Assembly: GCF_014202825.1 (NCBI RefSeq)
Contig: NZ_JACHHP010000007.1
Coordinates: 62,001 to 126,000, forward strand
DNA: 64,000 bases
Source of the DNA: Chiayiivirga flava
GTDB taxonomy: Bacteria; Pseudomonadota; Gammaproteobacteria; Xanthomonadales; Xanthomonadaceae
Direction: 5' to 3'
The position numbers and the translations under genes are program-made. Every line of letters starts with the position of its first letter. The first letter of the stretch is position 1. The notes under the pieces are model-generated. The model did no database searches and was not told the DNA's origin. It saw nothing but the letters and a program-made list of their open reading frames with translations. Below, piece by piece: positions 41,734 through 52,675 of this stretch.

Positions 41734-41962
41734 AAACGCCCAGTGCACAGCGTTCCGAGGGGAGCCCGCGTCGTGACCGTTCGTCGACCGACCATGACCA
41801 CTGGACCTGCATCCACACCCGACCCCGCTGCCGTCCGCGCCCGCCGCGGTACGGCCCCGTGACGGCCCGGCCCGCGCCGCGCCGTCCGCCATAAAAACAG
41901 CGTCACCACAACAAGGCACTGCCGCGCGTGCACGCGGCGGTGCGATGGAGGAAGCACCACCG

Positions 41963-44110
41963 ATGAGCACCGTCCGTCTCGAAGCCGTCAAGGCCGACCC
42001 CGCCGCCATCCCGATGCAGCCCGCCTCGTGGGACATCTGGGACAAGAAATACCGGCTCAAGACCAAGAAGAACGAGCCCGTCGACCTCAGCATCGACCAC
42101 ACCTACCAGCGCGTCGCGCGCGCACTCGCCGACGCCGAGCCCACGCCCGAAACGCAGAAATACTGGTACGAACGCTTCCTCTGGGCCCTGCGCCGCGGTG
42201 CGATCCCCGCCGGCCGCATCACGTCCAACGCCGGCGCCCAGGCGCACAAGCCCAAGACCAGCACCATCAACTGCACCGTCTCGGGCACCATCGAGGACTC
42301 GATGGACGGAATCCTGGAAAAGGTCCACGAAGCCGGCCTCACGCTCAAGGCCGGCTGCGGCATCGGCTACGAATTCAGCACGCTGCGCCCGCGCGGCGCG
42401 TACGTCTCCGGCGCCGGCGCGTACACCTCCGGCCCGATGTCCTTCATGGATATCTACGACAAGATGTGCTTCACCGTCAGCAGCGCCGGCGGCCGCCGCG
42501 GCGCGCAGATGGGCACCTTCGAAGTCGCGCACCCGGACGTGAAGGAATTCATCCGCGCCAAGCGCGAGGACGGCCGCCTGCGCCAGTTCAACCTCTCCCT
42601 GCTCATCACCGACGGCTTCATCGAAGCGGTCGAGAACGACACCGACTGGCCGCTCGTCTTTCCCGTGAACGTGAAGGAGCAGGACGACGTCGACCTCGCC
42701 GACCCGAAACAGATCGTCTGGCGCGAATGGCCCACGTCGAAAAACTACGTCACCCGCGACGACGGCCTCGTCGCCTGCAAGATCTACAGCCACATCCGCG
42801 CCCGCCACCTGTGGGACATGATCATGGTCTCGACGTACGACTACGCCGAGCCGGGCTTCATCCTCATCGACCGCGTCAACGAGATGAACAACAACTGGTG
42901 GTGCGAAACCATCCGCGCCACCAACCCCTGCGGCGAACAGCCGCTGCCGCCGTACGGCGCCTGCCTGCTCGGCTCCATCAACCTCACCACCTTCGTGCGC
43001 GACGCCTTCACCGACCAGGCCCGCTTCGACTGGGAGGAATACAAGGAAGTGGTGCGCGTCTTCACCCGCATGCTCGACAACGTGGTGGAAGTGAACGGCC
43101 TGCCGCTCGAACAGCAGCGCGCCGAAATCCTGCGCAAGCGCCGCCACGGCATGGGCTTCCTCGGCCTCGGCTCCACCGTCACCATGCTCAAGATGGCCTA
43201 CGGCAGCCCCGAGAGCTGCGAATTCACCGAACGCGTCGCGCGCGACATGGCCGTCGCCGGCTGGGAAATGGGCCTGAGTCTCGCCAAGGAAAAAGGCCCC
43301 GCGCCGATCATGGACGAGGTCTTCACCGTCACCGCCGAAATGCTGCGCAAGCGCCCGGAAATGGCCGCCGACGGCTGGACGCTCGGCCAGGAGATTCCCG
43401 GCCGCGTGCTGCACACCAGATACTCGCGCTACATGCAGCGCGTGGCCGAAGTGGCGCCGGATCTCGTCGAGGAACTGGCGGACGTGGGCGCGCGCTTCAC
43501 CCACCACAGCTCGATCGCGCCCACCGGCACCATCTCGCTGTCGCTCGCCAACAACGCCAGCAACGGCATCGAACCGAGCTTCGCGCACCACTACAGCCGC
43601 AACGTCATCCGCGAAGGCAAGAAGTCGAAAGAGAAGGTGGAGGTCTACAGCTACGAGCTGCTCGCCTACCGCACCCTCGTCAACCCCGACGCCATGCCGT
43701 TCTCCACCGATGCCGCGACGAAGCTGCCGGATTACTTCGTCGCCGCCGACGACATCACCCCGAAAGCCCACGTCGACATCCAGGCCGCCGCGCAGAAGTG
43801 GGTGGACTCGTCCATCAGCAAGACCGCCAACGTCCCGACGGACTACCCGTACGAAGATTTCAAGGACATCTACCTCTACGCCCACAAACAGGGACTCAAG
43901 GGCTGCACCACCTTCCGCTTCAACCCCGCCGCCTTCCAGGGCGTGCTGGTGAAGGAATCGGACCTGGAAAACACCACCTACCGTTTCGAACTCGAGGACG
44001 GCAGCGTGGTGGAAGCCCGCGGCAACGAGGAAATCGAATACGACGGCGAACTCCACACCGCCGCCAACCTCTTCGACGCATTGAAAGAGGGCTACTACGG
44101 CAAGTTCTGA
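41963..44110 (+). CDS. nrdJa: Adenosylcobalamin-dependent ribonucleotide reductase, large catalytic part (NrdJa)
   Basis: Class II reductase that makes deoxyribonucleotides using a B12-derived radical, independent of oxygen. 715 residues from the ATG at 41963, chosen because GGAGGAA (41947-41953) lies 9 bases upstream; an ATG at 41945 is in frame but lies before that site. The active site NPCGE places the thiyl-radical C323 and E325, with C104 (TINCTVSG) and C334 (GACLLGS) as the likely redox pair. PTGTISLSLANNASNGIEPSF is the phosphate-binding motif. The usual C-terminal TSCPD and zinc/cysteine domains are missing and are encoded separately by nrdJb at 45357. Confidence 0.95.
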   Translation: MSTVRLEAVKADPAAIPMQPASWDIWDKKYRLKTKKNEPVDLSIDHTYQRVARALADAEPTPETQKYWYERFLWALRRGAIPAGRITSNAGAQAHKPKTSTINCTVSGTIEDSMDGILEKVHEAGLTLKAGCGIGYEFSTLRPRGAYVSGAGAYTSGPMSFMDIYDKMCFTVSSAGGRRGAQMGTFEVAHPDVKEFIRAKREDGRLRQFNLSLLITDGFIEAVENDTDWPLVFPVNVKEQDDVDLADPKQIVWREWPTSKNYVTRDDGLVACKIYSHIRARHLWDMIMVSTYDYAEPGFILIDRVNEMNNNWWCETIRATNPCGEQPLPPYGACLLGSINLTTFVRDAFTDQARFDWEEYKEVVRVFTRMLDNVVEVNGLPLEQQRAEILRKRRHGMGFLGLGSTVTMLKMAYGSPESCEFTERVARDMAVAGWEMGLSLAKEKGPAPIMDEVFTVTAEMLRKRPEMAADGWTLGQEIPGRVLHTRYSRYMQRVAEVAPDLVEELADVGARFTHHSSIAPTGTISLSLANNASNGIEPSFAHHYSRNVIREGKKSKEKVEVYSYELLAYRTLVNPDAMPFSTDAATKLPDYFVAADDITPKAHVDIQAAAQKWVDSSISKTANVPTDYPYEDFKDIYLYAHKQGLKGCTTFRFNPAAFQGVLVKESDLENTTYRFELEDGSVVEARGNEEIEYDGELHTAANLFDALKEGYYGKF

Positions 44111-44183
44111 CCCCGCGGCGGTCATCGTTCGCCCACCGAACGAAACCCCGCCACCCGCGCACCGCACACCCCACACCGAAACA

Positions 44184-44230
44184 TTCCTCTCCCGCGAAGC
44201 GGGGGAGGATGCCGGCAGGCAGGAGGGGGT
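44184..44230. repeat. Single REP-like hairpin
   Basis: CTCTCCCGCGAAGCGGGGGAG hairpin with the tail GATGCCGGCAGGCAGGAGGGGG, the subtype of the 40.9-41.5 kb cluster. It lies in the 263-bp gap between nrdJa and the histone-like gene; no terminator T-run follows. Confidence 0.7.
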
Positions 44231-44373
44231 GCTCCACCGCCTCGGTCGTAACGCCACCGGCAACGCACCACACCGACCCAACACCACCCGCGCACGAAGC
44301 CCCCAGCCTCTTGCGCACACGCAGTCCAAAGCGCAGATTCACCACGCAATCAACCGACGAGGAGGGCTTCACG

Positions 44374-44907
44374 ATGAGCAATGGCAACGGTGTAAGCGCG
44401 ACACTTTCCAACGCCATGGAAAGCGTCTCGGAGAAAGCGCAGGAAGTGGCTGCGGGCGCGAAAGCGGCCGTCGAAAACGCCGCCACCGCGGTGAAGAAGA
44501 AGGCGGCCGCGGCAAAGAAATCCATCGCCAAGACCGCCGACAACGCCAAGAAGGCCGTCACCCGCGCCGTCGGCGACGCCAAGAAACGCGTCACCGCCGC
44601 ACGCAAGGGCCCGGCCAAGAAGAAACCGGCCGCCAAGAAGGCTGCGGCGAAGAAGTCGCCGGCCAAGAAGGCCGCCGCAAAGAAAGCGCCCGCCAGGAAG
44701 GCCGTGAAGAAGGCCACCAAGAAGGTCGCACGCAAGACCACGGCAGCAAAAAAGGCCGTGAAGTCCGCGGCGAAGAATGCCACGAAGAAAATCGCCGCGA
44801 AGAAATCCGCAGCGAAGAAGACCACGGCCCGCAAGTCGCCCGCGAAAAAGGCACCCGCCCGCAAATCGCCCGCGAAAAAGGCCGCAAAGACGTCCGCAAA
44901 ACGCTGA
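44374..44907 (+). CDS. Histone-H1-like Lys/Ala-rich DNA-binding protein
   Basis: 177 residues from the ATG at 44374, with GGAGG at 44361-44365. The N-terminal 40 residues are a moderately acidic amphipathic helix (SATLSNAMESVSEKAQEVAAGAKAAVENA). The rest is built of Lys/Ala/Pro repeats such as AAKK, SPAKKAAAKK and APARK, the H1/AlgP/HctB type of tail that coats DNA or RNA. Eukaryotic-like H1 tails are widespread in Xanthomonadaceae, but the gene's position between the two halves of the reductase is notable. The repeats could expand or contract by recombination. Confidence 0.88.
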   Translation: MSNGNGVSATLSNAMESVSEKAQEVAAGAKAAVENAATAVKKKAAAAKKSIAKTADNAKKAVTRAVGDAKKRVTAARKGPAKKKPAAKKAAAKKSPAKKAAAKKAPARKAVKKATKKVARKTTAAKKAVKSAAKNATKKIAAKKSAAKKTTARKSPAKKAPARKSPAKKAAKTSAKR

Positions 44908-44912
44908 GCCGC

Positions 44913-44942
44913 ACCCTCTCCCGCGTCCGCGCGGGAGAGGGT
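44913..44942 (+). terminator. Strong hairpin after the histone-like gene
   Basis: A perfect 13-bp stem: ACCCTCTCCCGCG (44913-44925) with CGCGGGAGAGGGT (44930-44942), loop TCCG. It starts 6 bases after the stop. It lacks a T-tract, so it may be a REP copy, an mRNA-stabilising end or a weak terminator. Confidence 0.6.
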
Positions 44943-45356
44943 CCACCGCCGGCGGTGAGAGAACCCGCACCCCACCGGCAGCAAGGAGTCAGCCCCGCCG
45001 CCGAACACCGCCACCGCAACACGCCACCACCACCGCCACCGCACCCCGACTACCGCCGCAGCACCATCGCGCAACGACCACCAGCGCACCCCGCACCCAA
45101 CCACCACCGCACCACAGCCCCCGCACCACAGCCTCCGCACCCCAGCCCCCCGCATCCCAGCCCCACCGCACCACCCGGCGAACCCCGCAGCGACCCGACA
45201 ACCCACCCGTCAGCCCGCGCGCCCGCCACCCACCCTCACCGTCGTCCCGGCGAACGCCGGGACCCAGCGACGTTCCCACCCCACACCCGCCACCACCACC
45301 ACACCCCGAACCCACCCCCCGGCCGCGCCCCGCGCGCCCCACCACCGAGCCCCCTC
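44943..45356 (+). other. C-rich, G-poor leader of nrdJb with a REP palindrome
   Basis: This 414-base stretch has no gene. On the plus strand it is extremely C-rich and G-poor (for example only 9 G in 45001-45060) with many CCACC and CACC runs. One palindrome, at 45240-45272 (GTCCCGGCG-AA-CGCCGGGAC with CGTC/GACG flanks), is a different REP type from the others in the window and resembles a family common in beta- and gammaproteobacteria. No Shine-Dalgarno sequence is visible before the nrdJb ATG. Confidence 0.7.
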
Positions 45357-46223
45357 ATGACCATCAAGATCAACAAGAAAATCAAGGCCTATACCGTCGC
45401 CAAACCCGACGACAACGCCGCCGCCACCGCCGCCCTGCAGGTCAAGACCCCCGCTCACAGCGACACCCTCGACCTGCCCACCGCCGAAGTCATCCAGATG
45501 CACGAGCGCGTCGAGCGCCCGGAAGTGCTCATCGGCAGCACCTACAAGATCAAGAGCCCCCTGGTCGAACACGCCCTCTACGTCACCATCAACGACATCG
45601 TCCTCAACCAGGGCACCGAATACGAATCGCGCCGCCCCTTCGAGATCTTCATCAATTCCAAGAACATGGACCACTTCCAGTGGGTGGTGGCCATCACGCG
45701 CATCATGAGCGCCGTCTTCCGCAAGGGCGGCGACGTCACCTTCCTCGTGGAAGAACTGAAAGCCGTCTTCGACCCGCGCGGCGGCTACTTCAAGGCCGGC
45801 GGCATCTACATGCCCAGCATCGTGGCCGAGATCGGCGCCGTGGTCGAAGACCACCTCAAACAGATCGGCATGATCGTCGGCGATGAACTCTCCGACGAGC
45901 AGAAGCGCCTGATTGCCGAGAAGCGCGCCGCGTACGACGCGCGCGCAAAAAAAAACTCTGATGTAAGCGCCCCGGCCGCGTCCCCGACCGCACCCGCGAT
46001 CCCTGCCGCCGCTCTCACTCCCTCTCCTGCGACAGCGGGTGAGGGCTGGGGAGGGGGCAGCACCTCCGCTTCGTCTTCCTCGGCCTCGTCCCCCGCCGAC
46101 ACCGAATCCGCCGGCAGCTACCCGCCGGGCGCGACGATGTGCAGCAAGTGCAGTACGAAGGCGTCGATCATCATGGATGGCTGCGCGACGTGTTTGTCGT
46201 GTGGGTATTCGAAGTGCGGATAA
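45357..46223 (+). CDS. nrdJb: Ribonucleotide reductase C-terminal subunit NrdJb (TSCPD and cysteine-rich tail)
   Basis: 288 residues from the ATG at 45357. The TSCPD-type domain spans about 55-170 (YKIKSPLVEHALYVTINDIV, FEIFINSKNMDHFQWVVAITRIMSAVFRKGGD). A low-complexity Ala/Ser/Thr linker follows (200-257), then a Cys-rich tail with C262, C265, C276, C279, C282 and C287. That tail carries the swinging redox cysteines needed to regenerate the NrdJa active site. The linker includes LTPSPATAGEGWGGGS (220-235), encoded by a REP-like sequence. Split nrdJa-nrdJb genes are known in Pseudomonas; there they adjoin, whereas here 1.25 kb separates them. Confidence 0.9.
   Translation: MTIKINKKIKAYTVAKPDDNAAATAALQVKTPAHSDTLDLPTAEVIQMHERVERPEVLIGSTYKIKSPLVEHALYVTINDIVLNQGTEYESRRPFEIFINSKNMDHFQWVVAITRIMSAVFRKGGDVTFLVEELKAVFDPRGGYFKAGGIYMPSIVAEIGAVVEDHLKQIGMIVGDELSDEQKRLIAEKRAAYDARAKKNSDVSAPAASPTAPAIPAAALTPSPATAGEGWGGGSTSASSSSASSPADTESAGSYPPGATMCSKCSTKASIIMDGCATCLSCGYSKCG
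46017..46062. repeat. REP-like sequence inside the nrdJb coding region
   Basis: CTCACTCCCTCTCCTGCGACAGCGGGTGAGGGCTGGGGAGGGGG reads as a degenerate copy of the common CCCTCTCCCGC..GCGGGAGAGGG-CTGGGG element. Its hairpin arms are imperfect, and it is translated in frame as part of the NrdJb linker. Confidence 0.55.
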
Positions 46224-46243
46224 CCGAGCGCGGGGTAACAAGA

Positions 46244-49200
46244 TTGAATGACGGGAATGCGGATACATTTGACGCATCTGTCGCCTTTGTATTTCTTACA
46301 GATATACACGTGAAGGGACAGGATTTTGATGCGCTTCGCGGACGACTCGTCGCAGGCGCAGTTCATTCCGCTTTAGAAGCCCAAGTCCCCGTCGTTCTCT
46401 TGGTGGGCGGAGACATCGCATATTCGGGAACAGCAGCCCAATACGAAATATTCGAAAATTTCGTTAACGAGTTTCGTGGAGAGCTCGCAAGACGGAATCT
46501 AGACTTTCGCGGAGTCATTTTGACGCCAGGCAACCACGACTGCGACTTTTCGCAGCAGCCGAAAAGCGTCAGAGCAGCCCTACAACTAGCTGCGAGCTCC
46601 CAGACTCATTTTGATCCCGACATTGCAGAAGAGCTGGTGTCTGTGCAAGACGCCTTCCGCACCTATTCCGAGCGCGCCTCGTTGTCAATGACGCGCATTT
46701 CGTCACTCCAAAGTCGTTGCACCTTGCAAGTTGGAGAGAACGCCTCGATAACTATCGACATAATAAACTCCGCTTGGGCATCGAGTTTGGATGAGCAGCC
46801 AGGGAAGATGGTCTTGCCGGTGCCTCAACTGGAACCCCCGTCCGAGAGTGGAGTAGCATTCGCTGTAATGCATCATCCGCCAAACTGGTTTGAGCCTTGG
46901 AATCAACGAGCACTGCTTCGCTGGCTGGATGAGCATTTTGATGGTGTATTTTTGGGGCACGAGCATCAACGTGAGTCGGTAGAGAGGGTGCGGCGTGAGG
47001 TCGACGCGCAACTGTTGATGATCTTTGGGCCCGCGTTCCACGAAGCGAATGCAATAGACGAAGGTTTTTCTGTTCATTGTCTAGATCTCAAACAAAAAAT
47101 GGCTCGTTCGAGCGATTTCTCTTGGAAGGGTGAATATTATTCCAGAGTTCCGCGCAGCGGCGTAGAGCTACCAATTGGGAATTCGGCTCGAAAGAACGGA
47201 CAGCTTAGGTTCTCCAAATCCTTCGAAGAATTTCTAAACGACCCCGGAATTCCGTTCAAGCACGGAAAAGTCAGCCGCCAGCTTAAACTAGATGATCTTT
47301 ATGTCCTGCCAGATTTGCGGTCCGCGATGCAGTCTGGTGGGGGTGCGACCGTAGAGGATATCGTGGATCGCACTGACGTGCTCTTGAGGTTATCTAGGTG
47401 TGAAACTGCGCTAATCTCAGCAGTCGAGCAGGCAGGCAAAACGTCGCTGGCAAAATATTTGACGCGAGATATTTTGCGGCGCGGTGAGGTTCCTTTATAT
47501 CTCGATGCGGGCAAGCTGCCGAGCAGTTTCCACGGAGAGATAACGGCTTGGATCAATACTTGCATTGCAGAACAATTTCCGGAGGACTGTCGCGAGAAAG
47601 TGGAACAAGCGATTCCCTCGAAGCGAGTTGCGTTGCTCGACAACATCCATCAGTTACCCGGCGGTCACGACGGTCTATCTCGCGTCCTGGAAAGGCTGCG
47701 GAATCACCACAGTCGGATTATTGGATTTACTGGCGAATTTTCGGCGGTTGCCGGCATCGTAGAGGACTTGTCAAGCGGGCGCTCCAATGTGTGGCGAGAT
47801 GCAGAACTGTTTGAGATTCCTCCGACGAGCCACAAGCTTCGATCAGAAATAATTCGACGATGGGTTGCATTGGGTGACGGAGGTTCATACTCAGAGTCCA
47901 AGCTCGAAGCGCGCTGTCGGCAATTGAAAAAATTTGTCGATGAAGTGTTCTCGCGAAATATAATTCCGAGATACCCGGTTTATGTATTGCTGATATTGCA
48001 GCAGCTCGAGTTGGCCTCAGATGCAAACTCGATAGTTGCTAACGGAAGTCACGGCTACCTTTTTGAAGAGCTAATAACTCGAACTGTTGACGATCGGGTC
48101 AAAAGCTTCAAGATTGAGATCGTTTTTGCGGTTCTTTCCGCTCTTGCGAGAAAACTCTCGAAGGAGCCAGGCGAATCTCTCTCTTCTGAAGAGTTTCGCG
48201 ATTTTTTTGATGAATTTCTCTCGGGTCGAAAAGTACATATTGACTTCGACTTGTTCACAAAGGAGGTCACAGGCGCGCAGATTTTGTTAGTGTATGGCGG
48301 TGCTGTTCGATTTCGCCATAATTATTACTACTTCTATTTCCTAGCCTTAAGTATTAGCTCGGATAGAAAGCGCGGCGACGGCGGCGGCGTCCTAGACGAA
48401 CTGGTGTCCTACATTCACACTGAGCGAAGTGCAAATGTTCTGACATTCCTAGCACATTTGGGACACGACGAGGGCGTGATCGAGCGTGTTTGTAAGCACG
48501 CTGACACAATTTTCGAAGGGCTCGACGAGGCGGAGATCTCCGAGGGATCAAAGCTGCTTGCAAGATTCCGCACAGTTGCTGAAAGAAGCGTACTCTTCGA
48601 CGGTCGGCCCTCCGACGTCAGCGACCACTTGGCACAACGTGCAGACGAGTTCGATCGAGGGCGGGGGGGGGCATCAGAACAGTTTACGGATGATCCTGGC
48701 AACGTGAGCGCGGCGTTCAAGACCATTCAGATTCTTGGTCAAGTGATTCGTAGCCGTGCGGGTAATCTAGATGGTGAGCTTAAAAAGAAGGCGGTGACTG
48801 CTTGCAGTCGGCTCGCCCGTAGGCTCATGAAACTAATATTTGAGCTTGTAGACAACCACGGAGCTGAAATTGCTCACCAAATGTCTGGTGCGCTCGAGGA
48901 GGTGCTTGCGATGGACCCGGAGCGAGCTCGCCAGCTCGCGAACAGATTGCTTGCTATGCTGATCTCTCAGCTAACTCTCGCGTCAGTTGCGCGAGTTTCG
49001 TCGGCAGTAGGTTCTACTGAACTTAGACCATTAGTTAATGAGATGCGCCAATTGAAAAAAGGAGTTACGGAGGGTCTTTTTTGGCTTGGTGCATCCATCC
49101 TCGCCGATAAGGATTTTCCCGTTGCGGCCGTAGACAAATTCTTGCATGAGACTAAAGAAGGGGAGGTGCTGCCCCGTATTGTGGTGCGTGAGTTAGTCAA

Positions 49201-49327
49201 GCGCCGATTCTACCTATCTCCACCGGAGCCTTCGATCAAGCGCAAGTACTGCGACCTGCTTGGGCTGGAGATTCGATACATTCCGCATGGGCGGAAGGGC
49301 TTAGAAGGGTTGTCTTATCGTGGTTAA
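46244..49327 (+). CDS. Metallophosphoesterase-STAND/NACHT-like NTPase fusion (candidate antiphage defence protein)
   Basis: About 1027 residues from a TTG at 46244, the first plausible start after the nrdJb stop; no in-frame ATG precedes the conserved region. N-terminal calcineurin-like metallophosphoesterase with every metal motif: D20-x-H22 (FLTDIHVKG), GGD 55-57, GNHD 96-99, HH 210-211 and GHEH 238-241. A P-loop NTPase follows: Walker A-like AVEQAGKTS near 393-401 (first Gly replaced), Walker B VALLDNIHQL near 462-471, and sensor-like IIGFTGE near 492-498. The C-terminal 400-plus residues look like helical repeats, as in STAND sensors. G+C is far lower than in neighbours (23 of 60 in 47941-48000), with rare-codon use, so it is horizontally acquired. 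A G9 run lies at 48663-48671. Confidence 0.82.
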   Translation: MNDGNADTFDASVAFVFLTDIHVKGQDFDALRGRLVAGAVHSALEAQVPVVLLVGGDIAYSGTAAQYEIFENFVNEFRGELARRNLDFRGVILTPGNHDCDFSQQPKSVRAALQLAASSQTHFDPDIAEELVSVQDAFRTYSERASLSMTRISSLQSRCTLQVGENASITIDIINSAWASSLDEQPGKMVLPVPQLEPPSESGVAFAVMHHPPNWFEPWNQRALLRWLDEHFDGVFLGHEHQRESVERVRREVDAQLLMIFGPAFHEANAIDEGFSVHCLDLKQKMARSSDFSWKGEYYSRVPRSGVELPIGNSARKNGQLRFSKSFEEFLNDPGIPFKHGKVSRQLKLDDLYVLPDLRSAMQSGGGATVEDIVDRTDVLLRLSRCETALISAVEQAGKTSLAKYLTRDILRRGEVPLYLDAGKLPSSFHGEITAWINTCIAEQFPEDCREKVEQAIPSKRVALLDNIHQLPGGHDGLSRVLERLRNHHSRIIGFTGEFSAVAGIVEDLSSGRSNVWRDAELFEIPPTSHKLRSEIIRRWVALGDGGSYSESKLEARCRQLKKFVDEVFSRNIIPRYPVYVLLILQQLELASDANSIVANGSHGYLFEELITRTVDDRVKSFKIEIVFAVLSALARKLSKEPGESLSSEEFRDFFDEFLSGRKVHIDFDLFTKEVTGAQILLVYGGAVRFRHNYYYFYFLALSISSDRKRGDGGGVLDELVSYIHTERSANVLTFLAHLGHDEGVIERVCKHADTIFEGLDEAEISEGSKLLARFRTVAERSVLFDGRPSDVSDHLAQRADEFDRGRGGASEQFTDDPGNVSAAFKTIQILGQVIRSRAGNLDGELKKKAVTACSRLARRLMKLIFELVDNHGAEIAHQMSGALEEVLAMDPERARQLANRLLAMLISQLTLASVARVSSAVGSTELRPLVNEMRQLKKGVTEGLFWLGASILADKDFPVAAVDKFLHETKEGEVLPRIVVRELVKRRFYLSPPEPSIKRKYCDLLGLEIRYIPHGRKGLEGLSYRG

Positions 49328-49329
49328 CG

Positions 49330-49762
49330 AGAAAACCCGGGTCAGAAAACCCGGGTCAGAGTGGCATTTCGCCAAGAACCCGGGTCAGAGTAACAGAACT
49401 CGGGCGAGAATCGAACTAAGTTTACTAGCAAGGGTTCACTTCTGATCTCGGTTTTTGGTTCATGAGTACAAATTAAATTCAATGCGTTGGGCTTTTGTTG
49501 CATAGCTGACCTGCCCGAAACTGGGGTCAGAGTAAGATTTATTGACCGTCAGCCTCTCCAAAATCCGAAAACCCGGGTCAGAGTAAGGTTTTTGAGCACG
49601 GCGCGAAGAAAACCCGGGTCAAAACCCGGGTCAGAGTGACATTTCACAGCCAAAACCGAAACCGGGTTTAGAGTCGAAAACCCGGGTCAGAGTGAAATAA
49701 ATCTGCGCTTGTCCGAAGTGTCGAGCCCTAGGATGTACAAGAGAAACCCGGGTCAGAGTGCG
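49330..49762 (+). repeat. Cluster of dispersed repeats with core AACCCGGGTCAGAGT
   Basis: At least eight copies or near-copies of the core occur in this 555-bp gap after the STAND gene (near 49333, 49347, 49377, 49521, 49568, 49609, 49624, 49678 and 49743). They are irregularly spaced and often extended by GACATTTC or AAGGTTTTTGAGC. CCCGGG within the core is self-complementary, and ACTCTGACCCC occurs inverted at 50970. Copies continue to about 56.16 kb but are absent from the core regions. Such GGGTCAGAGT elements are commonly REP-type non-autonomous elements; no transposase is present here. Confidence 0.75.
49516..49678 (+). repeat. 163-bp direct repeat, copy A
   Basis: Matches 50781-50943 base for base in the printed sequence over 163 bp, starting CGAAACTGGGGTCAGAGT and ending TTTAGAGTCGAA. 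It is a block of several core repeats. This copy lies in non-coding DNA; the second copy interrupts a gene. Confidence 0.9.
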
Positions 49763-49882
49763 ATTATTTTTGAGTTAGCCGCTCTTCGCGTGGGAAGAAC
49801 GGTTCCGACGCGAAGGGTGCGGGTTAATTCAGCAGCAGTATTTAAATCAACCTGACCCCGTCGGGTTTAAGGATGGATTCGA

Positions 49883-50392
49883 GTGAACCGCTTTGGAATT
49901 TTTCTCCCAGTAATGCTGCTCGCGGTGGCGTCGAGCGTCCGGGCCGGGATTCCCACTCCCGATTTACTGTCCACCGATCCGGCGGAGCCACGCGCCCACC
50001 AGCAGTTTGACCTGGTCTATACCCTCGAATCCTGCGGAGACATTTTCGCAGCAGACACTCCATCGAATAGGACGGTGGAAGTGGTGGGGAATGCGATTCG
50101 CGTCACCGCACTCTATGCCTCGCAACTCTGCCTCGGCGGTCAGCCCTATGCGCCATCCTATCGATGGCGCATAGGGCCGCTGAATTCCGGAATCTACCAA
50201 GTGGAATTGCGTGGGTACAACGAGCAAGGCGGTCCGGCGAATTCCTTTCCCATCGCGTCGGGCGAAGTCACGATCGCGCCTTCGATCCCAGTGCCGACCC
50301 CGGCGGTCATCCCGGCGTCGGGCACATCCTGGCTGTTGGGGATGATCGTTCTCATTGCAGTCGCGGCGGCATCGCGGATTCGTCGGACGTAG
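49883..50392 (+). CDS. Exported protein with IPTL-CTERM-like sorting tail
   Basis: 169 residues from a GTG at 49883, with signal peptide FGIFLPVMLLAVASSVRA. The body is about 110 residues of predicted beta structure with two Cys (C51, C82) that could form a disulfide, in an immunoglobulin-like or adhesion-like context (YTLESCGDIFAAD, YRWRIGPLNSGIYQVELRGYN). The C-terminus is PTPAVIPASGTSW followed by a hydrophobic helix and RIRRT. This has the tripartite Pro-motif, helix and basic-end form of IPTL/PEP-CTERM sorting signals. The product is likely anchored or exported through an exosortase-like enzyme that is not in this window. It lies between the two 163-bp repeats. Confidence 0.72.
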   Translation: MNRFGIFLPVMLLAVASSVRAGIPTPDLLSTDPAEPRAHQQFDLVYTLESCGDIFAADTPSNRTVEVVGNAIRVTALYASQLCLGGQPYAPSYRWRIGPLNSGIYQVELRGYNEQGGPANSFPIASGEVTIAPSIPVPTPAVIPASGTSWLLGMIVLIAVAAASRIRRT

Positions 50393-50589
50393 ACTTCGGG
50401 ATTGAAGACCAAAACCCGGGTCTGAGCAAAACCCACGTCCAAAGCCCGGGTCAGAGTAAGTTTATCCCGTAATTTTTCGACAACTATTTGCAGAACGCGA
50501 GTCAGTGTAGGTTTTCACAGCAGGAAAGCGCGCATCTAACCTTTCGCCGCGCTCGTGCAACGTCCGCCGAAGATTCAAGGAGACTCGAC

Positions 50590-50904
50590 ATGGCACTTCT
50601 GAAAACGCTCGCACTCGTATCCATCCTTGTGCTGTCTGCCAATCCGCAACCTGTGCTCGCCGCCAGGAGCGCCCCCGACGACGTGGCGGCACTGCGTGAG
50701 GTCGTGGAGGCCTACCGCCTGTCGATCCTCAAGAAGGACAAGGCGGCGTTCCTCGCGTTCTTCATCTCGGACAAGCCGGACGAAACTGGGGTCAGAGTAA
50801 GATTTATTGACCGTCAGCCTCTCCAAAATCCGAAAACCCGGGTCAGAGTAAGGTTTTTGAGCACGGCGCGAAGAAAACCCGGGTCAAAACCCGGGTCAGA
50901 GTGA
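50590..50904 (+). pseudogene. Disrupted exported NTF2/SnoaL-like protein
   Basis: Starts normally: AAGGAG, ATG at 50590, signal peptide (ALLKTLALVSILVLSANPQPVLA) and an NTF2-like opening (DVAALREVVEAYRLSILKKDKAAFLAFFISDKPD). The coding sequence then runs into repeat copy B at 50781. The remaining 40 residues (ETGVRVRF..KPGSKPGSE) are translated repeat, not protein domain. The family normally needs about 120-150 residues, so two-thirds is missing. No remainder of the gene is recognisable after the repeat, so the insertion was accompanied by loss of the 3' part. Confidence 0.75.
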
Positions 50905-50943
50905 CATTTCACAGCCAAAACCGAAACCGGGTTTAGAGTCGAA
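50781..50943 (+). repeat. 163-bp direct repeat, copy B
   Basis: Identical to 49516-49678. It begins inside the NTF2-like gene and ends in non-coding DNA, followed by an inverted core (ACTCTGACCCCGG at 50973) and GATCAACCTGATCCCC. That last element recurs at 49850 and 52780 as ATCAACCTGACCCC. The rest of the 50905-51201 gap has no gene. Confidence 0.9.
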
Positions 50944-51201
50944 TTTCAGTTTCGGCGACCAGCCAGAATTCCACTCTGACCCCGGTTTTGCATCCAGAGG
51001 CAGTTTTGGATCAACCTGATCCCCTCGGAAACGGGGGCAGGTCCGCGCGGCGGTGCTCGAAAGTGGACCCGAACCCGTTCCCGGCACATGCCGTCGCAGT
51101 TGGGAGGCGCATTTCCTGCGACGCAACATCCGCGTGGACGCTGCGTTCAGATGGGTTACCTTGCGCCTCTCGTCGACGACCGCCCCCGCATGGAGACTGC
51201 C

Positions 51202-51741
51202 ATGGCCTTGAGAATGTTTGCCTTCACGTGGCTGCTGTGGATCGCAACGCTGTCGTGGGGCGTTGGCCTGGGCGCCAAGCTCTTCGATCTGCTGGTGGTG
51301 GCTGGTGCATGGGGCGCTTCGCCGCCGGCGTCGTTCGCGCTCCTGCCGTACGGACCGGCCTATCCGTTGAATCCGGGCGCCTTCTTCCAGCCGCTGTCCA
51401 TCGTGATGGCGGTGAGCATCGTCGGCGCGCTGATTGCGGGCTGGGGGCATTCGCGACCGATGCGGGTGTGGCTGTGGATCGGAACGTTGTCCTTCGTGGC
51501 CATCTGGGCAATCACCCCAACCGTGTTCTGGCCCATGATCAACCAGCAGTACGACATTGCGACCGGCAAGCTCACGGCGAGCGTCGCCGAAGCGACGGCG
51601 CTCACCGCCCGCTGGTATGCGTGGGACTGGTTCCGCGTGTGCCTGATCGCGCTCGGATTCGTCGCGTCCGTGCGGGCAATCTCGCTCGGTACGGCGTTGC
51701 ATCAAAACGAAATCGGGGTCAGTTCAACTTTGCCGGAATGA
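51202..51741 (+). CDS. Four-helix membrane protein (DUF1772/anthrone-oxygenase-like)
   Basis: 179 residues from the ATG at 51202, with GGAG 6 bases upstream (an ATG at 51190 is also possible). Four hydrophobic segments: FAFTWLLWIATLSWGVGLGAKLFDLLVV, PLSIVMAVSIVGALIAGW, VWLWIGTLSFVAIWAITPTVFWP and WFRVCLIALGFVASVRAIS. The spacing and the N-ter-ATLSWGVGLGAKLF motif resemble DUF1772/anthrone oxygenase-like membrane proteins. The last ten residues (NEIGVSSTLPE) come from a repeat copy (CGGGGTCAGTTCAAC), so the native C-terminus has been replaced. Function unknown. Confidence 0.7.
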   Translation: MALRMFAFTWLLWIATLSWGVGLGAKLFDLLVVAGAWGASPPASFALLPYGPAYPLNPGAFFQPLSIVMAVSIVGALIAGWGHSRPMRVWLWIGTLSFVAIWAITPTVFWPMINQQYDIATGKLTASVAEATALTARWYAWDWFRVCLIALGFVASVRAISLGTALHQNEIGVSSTLPE

Positions 51742-51843
51742 AGACGTTGATCTGGATGCCATCGATTCGAGCCGAATGCTGTGACAGAGTGAATAATGGC
51801 TGCGTAATTGATGCAGACGCGGCTTGACAGGGAGGAGAATTCG

Positions 51844-52254
51844 ATGCGCTTCAGCAAAATTGTTGCCCTGATCGTGTTCTTGCCCACCTCAGTTCACGCG
51901 GGCGGATCAGGGAATCCGGTGCGAGATGATGCACCGTTTCCCTTTGAGGATGTCGACCGCGGAAAGGAATACTTGGCGGAGCGATTCGAAGGCGAGTCCG
52001 CTGCAGATGGCATAACCGCCTACTTTGACGATGAGAAGATTCACACATGGCTGCTGCTTGAGGAGCCAGGCGGAGCCAGGCGCGCCATCATTCGCAGCCG
52101 CACGGGCCTCGTGGAAGGAGAGATCGCTGACTTTTACAGGATCATGTGTCACGGACCCGAATCTTGGTGCGACCATTTGGAGGCCTGGCACAGACAGAGC
52201 TTGGAAAAGAACCCGCCACCACCTCCGCCACCCGACCTCATGGATCTCCTTTAA
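51844..52254 (+). CDS. Small exported protein, function unknown
   Basis: 136 residues from the ATG at 51844, preceded by GGAGGAG at 51831-51837. The signal peptide is RFSKIVALIVFLPTSVHA. The mature domain of about 100 residues has charged alpha/beta character (DDEKIHTWLLLEEPGGARRAIIRSRTG) and two Cys (in IMCHGPESWCDH). It ends with a run of seven prolines and DLMDLL. No family is recognised. Followed by a repeat copy at 52258. Confidence 0.65.
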   Translation: MRFSKIVALIVFLPTSVHAGGSGNPVRDDAPFPFEDVDRGKEYLAERFEGESAADGITAYFDDEKIHTWLLLEEPGGARRAIIRSRTGLVEGEIADFYRIMCHGPESWCDHLEAWHRQSLEKNPPPPPPPDLMDLL

Positions 52255-52360
52255 AAAAAAGCCGGGTCAATCGAGTATCGGGGTCGGACCGCTCTCCGGC
52301 GCTGGCAAGCGAACGGTCCCCGTTTCCCTTCGGCGTGGCTCAACCAAGGTGTTAGACCTC

Positions 52361-52675
52361 ATGGATGCATACTCGCGAGCATGGAGGCTGCATCGGATCT
52401 GGAGGCGACTGCCGCATGTAGGATTCGCGATCAGCGCTGTCTTGATCGTGGGGATCGATTCGCGCGCACTCGAATTCGCCAAGCCATACGCAAGCTTCTA
52501 CGCCGCGCCATTCGGCTTGGCTCTCGTGGCTTCAGCATTCGGGCTCGCCATGTTCCGCTGCCCCCGTTGCGGGAAGCGCTTCCATGCAAGCTTCATCACG
52601 GGAACGTTCTTGTACCGGAGAGAACAATCTCCTCCCTGCGTCAATTGCGGCCAACCCTTGTACGGCGAGCCCTAA
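52361..52675 (+). CDS. Small membrane protein with zinc-ribbon tail
   Basis: 104 residues from the ATG at 52361. Two hydrophobic segments (VGFAISAVLIVGID and YAAPFGLALVASAFGLAMF) precede a zinc-ribbon pair CPRCGKRFH..CVNCGQPL near residues 66-100. The open frame extends upstream through the repeat at 52258 but has no coding character there. Proteins of this form (YgzB-like or small rubredoxin-type membrane proteins) are uncharacterised. No partner gene is evident. Confidence 0.65.
   Translation: MDAYSRAWRLHRIWRRLPHVGFAISAVLIVGIDSRALEFAKPYASFYAAPFGLALVASAFGLAMFRCPRCGKRFHASFITGTFLYRREQSPPCVNCGQPLYGEP

What the first reader, a model, noticed from the sequence alone, without database searches (positions are those of the whole stretch)
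46244..49327. Metallophosphoesterase fused to a STAND/NACHT-like NTPase: candidate new antiphage system
Seen: complete calcineurin-like phosphoesterase metal motifs (D20-x-H22, GGD 55-57, GNHD 96-99, HH 210-211, GHEH 238-241), then a P-loop NTPase (QAGKTS, LLDNIHQL, IIGFTGE), then more than 400 residues of helical sequence, in DNA of much lower G+C than both flanks. Known: Avs and bacterial NACHT proteins pair an N-terminal effector with a STAND ATPase and a C-terminal sensor for phage proteins. Inference: here the effector would be a phosphoesterase or nuclease activated on infection. I do not know of a characterised defence system with exactly this architecture.
Basis: partly seen in the sequence, partly recalled or inferred. 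Interest (0 to 1): 0.85.

Follow-up and report, generated by a model that had tools for sequence, protein, structure and literature searches.

The report
A known antiphage protein family member
This bacterial gene belongs to a recently described family of single-protein phage sensors that join an enzyme to an immune-type switch, and it sits behind a DNA-building-block operon at a spot where related bacteria carry other acquired genes, several of them defence-like.

Summary
In detail: one intact gene (TTG 46244..49327, 1027 aa) fuses a dimetal phosphoesterase to a STAND NTPase and a helical C-terminus, in low-G+C DNA. The architecture is not new: the protein passes the curated cut-off of NCBIfam NF053861 'DS8_antiphage' (813.1 bits, cut-off 790). 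DS-8 was validated in E. coli in 2026; phosphoesterase and NTPase mutants lose protection (PMC13092281, passages). This is a divergent member: nearest relatives found are 31-32% identical, and none of 148 other related genomes passes the cut-off.

Additions: (1) the same NTPase and C-terminus carry TIR instead of the phosphoesterase in about a third of the relatives found, so the effector is exchangeable; (2) the phosphoesterase's nearest solved fold is YydB, not SMPDL3A, so a cyclic-nucleotide substrate is unproven; (3) the C-terminal domain folds confidently alone, without significant PDB match; (4) the gene lies 20 bp behind a ribonucleotide reductase/TSCPD operon whose 3' end is followed by low-G+C DNA in 13 of 31 relatives, several with defence-type genes. 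Point 4 is the most novel.

The parts
46244..49327 (+). DS-8-family gene, 1027 aa, TTG start inferred
   Evidence: NF053861 813.1 bits against cut-off 790
46277..47182 (+). N-terminal calcineurin-like phosphoesterase domain (residues 12-313), metal ligands D20 H22 D57 N97 H210 H239 H241
   Evidence: Pfam, conservation, fold
47279..47878 (+). P-loop NTPase (residues about 346-545), NLR/ORC-like fold
47420..47443 (+). Walker A, AVEQAGKT (393-400)
47627..47644 (+). Walker B, VALLDN (462-467)
48176..48343 (+). nSTAND_NTPase4 segment (645-700)
48359..49279 (+). all-helical C-terminal domain (about 706-1012), presumed sensor, shared with TIR-type relatives
   Evidence: identity; model of 700-1014, pLDDT 93.0, pTM 0.90; no significant match
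41945..44110 (+). ribonucleotide reductase large chain (nrdJ type), native neighbour
   Evidence: Pfam Ribonuc_red_lgC 3e-129; kept in 12 of 12 relatives compared
45357..46223 (+). TSCPD-domain protein, ends 20 bp before the DS-8 start codon
   Evidence: present in 52 of 60 genomes searched, own included
46224..52500 (.). low-G+C stretch behind TSCPD, probably inserted; right end not resolved, 52500 is only where G+C rises
49350..49759 (+). cluster of six CCCGGGTCAGAGT repeats behind the gene (further copies at 50445, 50837, 50890, 54666, 54756)

Best explanation
A DS-8-family single-protein antiphage switch. Shown here: the residues of an intact dimetal phosphoesterase, a STAND/NLR-type NTPase with the conserved Walker lysine and aspartate, and a conserved helical C-terminal domain, in one patchily distributed gene of foreign base composition. 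Inferred: at rest the NTPase holds the phosphoesterase inactive; the C-terminal domain binds an unknown product of infection; ATP binding drives oligomerisation; the clustered phosphoesterase domains then cut an essential phosphoester (a nucleotide or nucleic acid more likely than a dedicated cyclic-nucleotide signal), stopping the infected cell. That the same core carries a TIR domain in relatives fits a toxic, exchangeable effector. The gene is probably transcribed as the tail of the nrdJ-TSCPD operon (inferred from the 20-bp gap; a crude consensus scan found no promoter-like site).
For: NF053861 DS8_antiphage above cut-off over residues 18-1008; PADLOC PDC-S60 1.4e-48 over 321-1010. DS-8 protects E. 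coli, and either of two metallophosphatase mutations or a NACHT mutation abolishes protection (PMC13092281, passages). Metal ligands and Walker residues conserved. Model pLDDT 82.2, pTM 0.63; Foldseek matches NOD2, NLRP9, NLRP3 and, weaker, Avs4. Patchy: over the cut-off 1 of 149, 2 of 369, 1 of 398, the own genome being one in each. Defence neighbourhoods of some relatives. Effector exchange.
Against: The score is only 23 bits over the cut-off and the nearest relatives are 31-32% identical, so function could have drifted. Pfam NACHT itself was not hit at E up to 1. Walker A lacks its first glycine. The DS-8 profile also rings weakly and in part in many genomes (19 of 149, 71 of 369, 153 of 398 at E <= 0.001, and 7 of 14 control genomes), mostly single phosphoesterase or P-loop stretches. 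No experiment on this protein; trigger and substrate unknown. TIR domains can also make signals (recalled), so exchange with TIR does not prove a toxic effector.
Confidence: 0.82

Rival explanations
1. The phosphoesterase degrades a cyclic-nucleotide signal, as suggested for DS-8 from its likeness to human SMPDL3A, so the protein tunes or blocks nucleotide signalling instead of poisoning the cell.
For: Suggested in PMC13092281 (passage). SMPDL3A structures align well (Z 18.2-19.3, 255-262 residues), as does Rv0805 (Z 20.2), a cyclic-nucleotide phosphodiesterase (its function recalled).
Against: SMPDL3A is not the nearest fold: YydB Z 27.2 over 287 residues, purple acid phosphatases up to 21.5. 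A profile search lists Lmo2642, GpdQ, SbcD and Rv0805 among 29 chains at E <= 0.01, not SMPDL3A. TIR takes the effector's place in relatives.
Confidence: 0.25
2. The phosphoesterase is a DNA nuclease (Mre11/SbcD-like) switched on by infection.
For: Profile matches SbcD and Mre11 chains (E about 1e-4 to 6e-3); Mre11 structures Z 16.4-16.6.
Against: Other phosphoesterases score higher in both comparisons.
Confidence: 0.25
3. A non-defence regulatory STAND phosphoesterase of the ribonucleotide reductase operon.
For: 20-bp gap to TSCPD; RNR genes directly upstream also in L101, L142, L144, L173.
Against: TSCPD is in 52 of 60 genomes, while no other of 149 relatives has a DS-8 match over the cut-off; RNR genes were found in only 4 of 94 DS-8-family loci; other unrelated genes occupy the same site in relatives.
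Confidence: 0.04

Closest known systems
DS-8 (DefensePredictor; NCBIfam NF053861; PMC13092281)
   Same: Single protein, phosphoesterase plus NACHT/STAND plus C-terminal part, full-length match above the curated cut-off
   Different: Divergent (23 bits above cut-off); the E. coli DS-8 sequence itself was not recovered here for direct comparison; lies behind nrdJ-TSCPD
PADLOC PDC-S60
   Same: Both models of this candidate match (1.4e-48 over 321-1010; 9.6e-26 over 17-470)
   Different: A candidate only; 0 papers in the library hold the name
TIR-type relatives of the same core (P0004 Vibrio plasmid, P0005, P0007, P0008)
   Same: NTPase and C-terminus match NF053861 from position 289-299 to its end, E 5e-156 to 1e-170
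   Different: TIR instead of phosphoesterase (Pfam TIR_2); below the DS-8 cut-off
Avs / bacterial NACHT proteins
   Same: Effector-STAND-sensor layout; Avs4 8dgf_B matched at E 3.2e-4
   Different: No Avs model matched in PADLOC at E up to 1
DS-9A (NF053862)
   Same: Related phosphoesterase (E 1.8e-8)
   Different: 33.6 bits against cut-off 420; DS-9 is a two-gene system with a HAD phosphatase
B. subtilis YydB (9a6c_B)
   Same: Nearest solved fold of the phosphoesterase domain (Z 27.2)
   Different: Modelled with a separate partner, YydD; only its residues 1-316 of 481 align

Membership tests
DS-8 (NF053861) | Full-length match above the curated equivalog cut-off of 790 bits | tested here: met
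   813.1 bits, profile 2-994 of 994
DS-8 (NF053861) | N-terminal metallophosphatase with intact metal ligands | tested here: met
DS-8 (NF053861) | P-loop NACHT/STAND NTPase with Walker lysine | tested here: met
   K399, D466 in 94 of 94; NLR folds; Pfam nSTAND_NTPase4 passes, Pfam NACHT not hit
DS-8 (NF053861) | Acts as a single-gene system | tested here: inconclusive
   The largest cluster of recurrent neighbours covers 9 of 94 loci; function not tested
DS-8 (NF053861) | Phage protection lost on phosphatase or NTPase mutation | not testable with these tools
   reported for E. coli DS-8 only
Avs | Match to Avs models | tested here: not met
   PADLOC at E up to 1 lists PDC-S60 (two models), an Effector model and PDC-S10, no Avs
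Avs | C-terminal domain binding phage terminase or portal | not testable with these tools
   no binding data; C-terminal model has no significant PDB match
SMPDL3A-like cyclic-nucleotide hydrolase | Phosphoesterase closest to SMPDL3A | tested here: inconclusive
   Z 18.2-19.3, below YydB 27.2, purple acid phosphatases up to 21.5, Rv0805 20.2; rows within 1 Z are ties and a fold shows no substrate

The most novel reading that the evidence does not exclude
The 3' end of the nrdJ-TSCPD (B12-type ribonucleotide reductase) operon is a conserved docking site for horizontally acquired defence genes in this bacterial group, and DS-8-family genes dock behind ribonucleotide reductase genes elsewhere too (class II in Longilinea and Herpetosiphon, NrdAB in Stutzerimonas and Microbulbifer), so that read-through ties immunity to dNTP synthesis and the phosphoesterase may act on the nucleotide pool.
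Probability: 0.3. Interest if true: 0.65.

Novelty: new member of a known kind. Interest (0 to 1): 0.45.

Why it matters
It carries a months-old defence family far beyond E. coli (relatives in at least ten phyla, many of them metagenome assemblies), shows that one NTPase-sensor core is served by two unrelated effectors, phosphoesterase or TIR, which makes swap experiments possible, questions the cyclic-nucleotide reading that rests on SMPDL3A likeness, and points to the tail of a ribonucleotide reductase operon as a place to look for further defence genes.

Tried and rejected
Housekeeping gene: rejected. New architecture: rejected. Chance motifs: rejected. Att-type duplication of the TSCPD 3' end in the following 17.7 kb: only short matches, best 19 bp at 94.7%. 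Right boundary of the insert by synteny: none of nine genes downstream of DS-8 in the window was found in 12 relatives' stretches, two of which run under 2.3 kb beyond TSCPD, so the empty site is known on its left side only. Direct comparison with E. coli DS-8: blastn of a high-scoring locus, L022 (1073.3 bits), found nothing in the E. coli genomes. Single-sequence scans of genome contigs (36 pattern matches, none confirmed) and viral contigs gave nothing; alignment scans did. Phage records: no match; plasmids: 13 records, one covering at least 80%. C-terminal domain: Foldseek finds no PDB chain (library of 350,542) and no viral model at E <= 0.001, and VIA's best Z is 9.4, at the level of common helical arrangements. 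Papers: one paper since 2025 holds three of the terms DS-8, metallophosphatase, SMPDL3A, bacteri, namely PMC13092281; PDC-S60 in none. Searches pairing ribonucleotide reductase or TSCPD with defence hotspots listed no paper whose title or abstract names this site, but I saw only 15 of 89 and 12 of 16,956 papers as listings, so absence from print is weakly supported. In the S. maltophilia island paper PMC11680222 (passages only) 'reductase' and 'ribonucle' are absent from the main text, but its table S3 of flanking genes was not read, so prior description there is not excluded. The YydB paper search was uninformative.

Limits of my counts. Type I R-M neighbours, 8 of 94 loci against 0 of 39 control stretches, rest on a small control and I ran no test on them. 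The recombinase cluster holds 8 loci by all-against-all clustering but 5 by a direct search with its representative. The two PADLOC scans report matched families (270 against 42), not matched proteins, and one protein can match many models. The 110 neighbour ORFs were 110 of 150 listed, after I dropped pieces of the system itself and cut the list at the residue limit; the 110 control ORFs were 110 of 150. ORFs were called by a greedy script that can give false antisense ORFs in G+C-rich DNA. Before the tree I dropped four near-copies (L114, L130, L167, L160) and short cores, and 36 named rows (long branches, near-copies, undecided) for the second tree. Hotspot: of the relatives with TSCPD I fetched 32 and used 31, L265 being too short; of 13 low-G+C loci I scanned the first downstream protein of 9, plus L251 (0.59 G+C); left out: L244 (integrase-like by eye), L246, L260, L273 (like L264 by eye). 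No control proteins were scanned at E <= 1e-3. The 118 comparison windows come from the same stretches and are not independent. The RNR link was noticed after the fact.
Full report
What is there. The stretch 46244-49327 (+) codes for 1027 residues from a TTG codon, 20 bp behind the stop codon of a TSCPD-domain gene. Pfam sees Metallophos at 15-242 and nSTAND_NTPase4 at 645-700, both above their curated cut-offs. An AlphaFold2 model built on 44 related sequences has mean pLDDT 82.2 and pTM 0.63: a phosphoesterase domain (about 12-313), a P-loop NTPase (about 346-545), a mainly helical stretch, and an all-helical C-terminal domain; the domain borders are mine.

Which family. NCBIfam's equivalog NF053861 'DS8_antiphage' matches residues 18-1008 with 813.1 bits, cut-off 790. 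PADLOC's candidate PDC-S60 matches with two models. DS-8 comes from DefensePredictor (PMC13092281, Science author manuscript dated 2 April 2026; I saw the outline with abstract and the passages on DS-8 and DS-9). There it is a single protein with a metallophosphatase and a NACHT domain that protects E. coli; changing either of two predicted catalytic phosphatase residues or a NACHT residue abolishes protection; the nucleotide it acts on is unknown, and the authors liken it to human SMPDL3A.

How divergent and how spread. Over the cut-off are 1 of 149 relatives, 2 of 369 in the class and 1 of 398 in the phylum, the own genome being one in each. Those counts understate the family: G550 holds two strong pieces on two contigs (500 and 395 bits), and TIR-type genes score below the cut-off. 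Weak partial matches are common and mostly other phosphoesterases or P-loop proteins (19, 71 and 153 genomes at E <= 0.001). An alignment-led scan of genome contigs gave 94 relatives, 80 kept, from Pseudomonadota, Bacillota, Bacteroidota, Chloroflexota, Planctomycetota, Acidobacteriota, Nitrospirota, Gemmatimonadota, Armatimonadota, Verrucomicrobiota and others (labels); the nearest are 32% (a Rhodanobacteraceae MAG) and 31% (a Thermomonas MAG) identical. A scan of viral contigs gave 12. In both core trees the window protein groups with those two (support 100).

Effector exchange. Several relatives match only profile positions from about 289 to the end. Five such proteins were given to Pfam and all five begin with a TIR domain (P0004, P0005, P0007, P0008, P0010; TIR_2). 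Among 96 sequences a motif rule gave 51 phosphoesterase-type, 30 TIR-type and 15 undecided. I looked at 11 undecided or fragmentary loci: five have a TIR reading frame just upstream of the core in another frame, five are phosphoesterase-like or pieces of one, and L171 is unclear. Mean identity of the C-terminal domain is 0.220 between the two types and 0.227 within the phosphoesterase type; in the N-terminal region it is 0.127 between types. The trees need two changes of effector, and a single exchange is not ruled out. The scan queries held phosphoesterase-type rows (A1) or both types (A2), so the share of TIR is not a census. The exchange argues that C-terminus and NTPase form the sensing unit and the N-terminus a replaceable output.

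The phosphoesterase. The metal ligands are invariant in 51 of 51 (partly by selection). Against solved structures the nearest fold is B. subtilis YydB (9a6c_B, Z 27.2, 287 residues, rmsd 2.9), then purple acid phosphatases (up to 21.5), Rv0805 (20.2), GpdQ (19.3), SMPDL3A (18.2-19.3), Mre11 (16.4-16.6) (a second look at Foldseek's own matches); Foldseek also puts YydB first. By sequence profile the best phosphoesterase chains are Lmo2642, GpdQ, SbcD and Rv0805 (designed RecA fusions head that list through their P-loops). SMPDL3A is therefore one of many relatives and no special guide to the substrate.

The NTPase and C-terminus. Foldseek matches the model to NOD2, NLRP9, NLRP3, ORC1 and, weaker, Avs4. 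The C-terminal domain alone (window 48341-49285, 61 sequences of both types) gives pLDDT 93.0 and pTM 0.90, yet no PDB chain or viral model at E <= 0.001, and VIA Z at most 9.4, in the range of common helical arrangements. This does not show a new fold, but a confident shared domain without a clear solved relative is a good candidate for the sensor.

Neighbourhoods. In 94 loci the recurrent neighbour clusters are an ABC-type ATPase cluster (9 loci, unspecific), recombinases (8 by clustering, 5 by direct search), HsdM (8), TIR frames of the system itself (8), HsdR (7) and phage structural genes (5 to 6 viral loci; P2-like by eye). None of 39 control stretches matches the HsdM or HsdR representative at the same threshold. 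In two TIR loci (L153, L168) the gene lies between hsdS and hsdR. In PADLOC at E <= 1e-10, 110 neighbouring ORFs match 270 families, led by type I restriction-modification, and 110 control ORFs match 42, led by mad8 and PD-T4-6 models. Pfam finds type I R-M domains, integrases, resolvases and ribonucleotide reductase small chains among the neighbours. On a Paenisporosarcina plasmid the homologue lies near an Eco57I-type methylase gene, a Pycsar effector and Hachiman.

The site. In 12 of 12 relatives whose stretches I compared, nrdJ and TSCPD are kept (degP too in 10), and none of the window's downstream genes tested follows. TSCPD is in 52 of 60 genomes. In 31 relatives the first kb behind TSCPD is below 0.56 G+C in 13, against 2 of 118 one-kb windows at least 6 kb farther on (Fisher p 1e-8, windows not independent); the window has 0.517. 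Among 11 relatives no two share a blastn match over 250 bp there. In 12 of the 13 low-G+C loci the first ORF of at least 130 aa has the operon's direction, in 9 of 17 others. Of ten first downstream proteins given to PADLOC, six match at E <= 1e-3 and four at <= 1e-10: dGTPase (9.4e-77), PDC-S49 (1.3e-39), HEC-04 (1.2e-32) and CapP (1.1e-16, a Peptidase_M78 domain in Pfam); four match nothing. DS-8-family genes also follow ribonucleotide reductase genes in L101 and L142 (class II) and L144 and L173 (NrdAB), 4 of 94 loci, and none of 39 control stretches holds such a gene. Others follow gyrB, guaA or uvrA ends (named by eye), so tails of housekeeping operons in general may be the rule. A crude consensus scan found no promoter-like site in 44100-50000 (1.9 expected), which proves little.

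Verdict. A new, divergent member of DS-8, in a setting that is more novel than the gene.

Noticed in passing
window 46224-52500; L244-L275: The 3' end of the nrdJ-TSCPD operon is a variable, often low-G+C site in related genomes, with a dGTPase (L249), a PDC-S49 protein (L272), a HEC-04-like AAA ATPase (L264), an ImmA/CapP-like peptidase (L247) and a DUF2971 gene (L271) among the first genes behind it.
   Followed up: partly
window 49350-49759, 50445, 50837, 50890, 54666, 54756: AACCCGGGTCAGAGT occurs 18 times in the genome, on three contigs (C7 10, C3 6, C1 2), always on one strand within a contig; the pattern read backwards occurs 0 times. Nature unknown.
   Followed up: no
L085, L086, L089, L164, L169: In five TIR-type relatives the TIR domain and the NTPase core lie in two adjacent reading frames, either split systems or frameshifts.
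   Followed up: no
L154, L166, L167: A second, separate TIR gene lies directly upstream of a TIR-type core gene.
   Followed up: no
L087, L155, L159 (downstream); L080, L088, L091 (upstream): Small membrane-like proteins (about 190-294 aa, membrane nature by eye) are coupled to TIR-type core genes, possible partners.
   Followed up: no
L003, L025, L057, L060: The same kind of phosphoesterase domain is fused to other C-termini: another P-loop ATPase, a SIR2-like and a sulfatase-modifying-factor-like domain (read by eye, no family search).
   Followed up: no
L141: A phosphoesterase-type relative in Erwinia oleae lacks its start and has transposase-like frames just upstream (by eye), probably an insertion element.
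   Followed up: no
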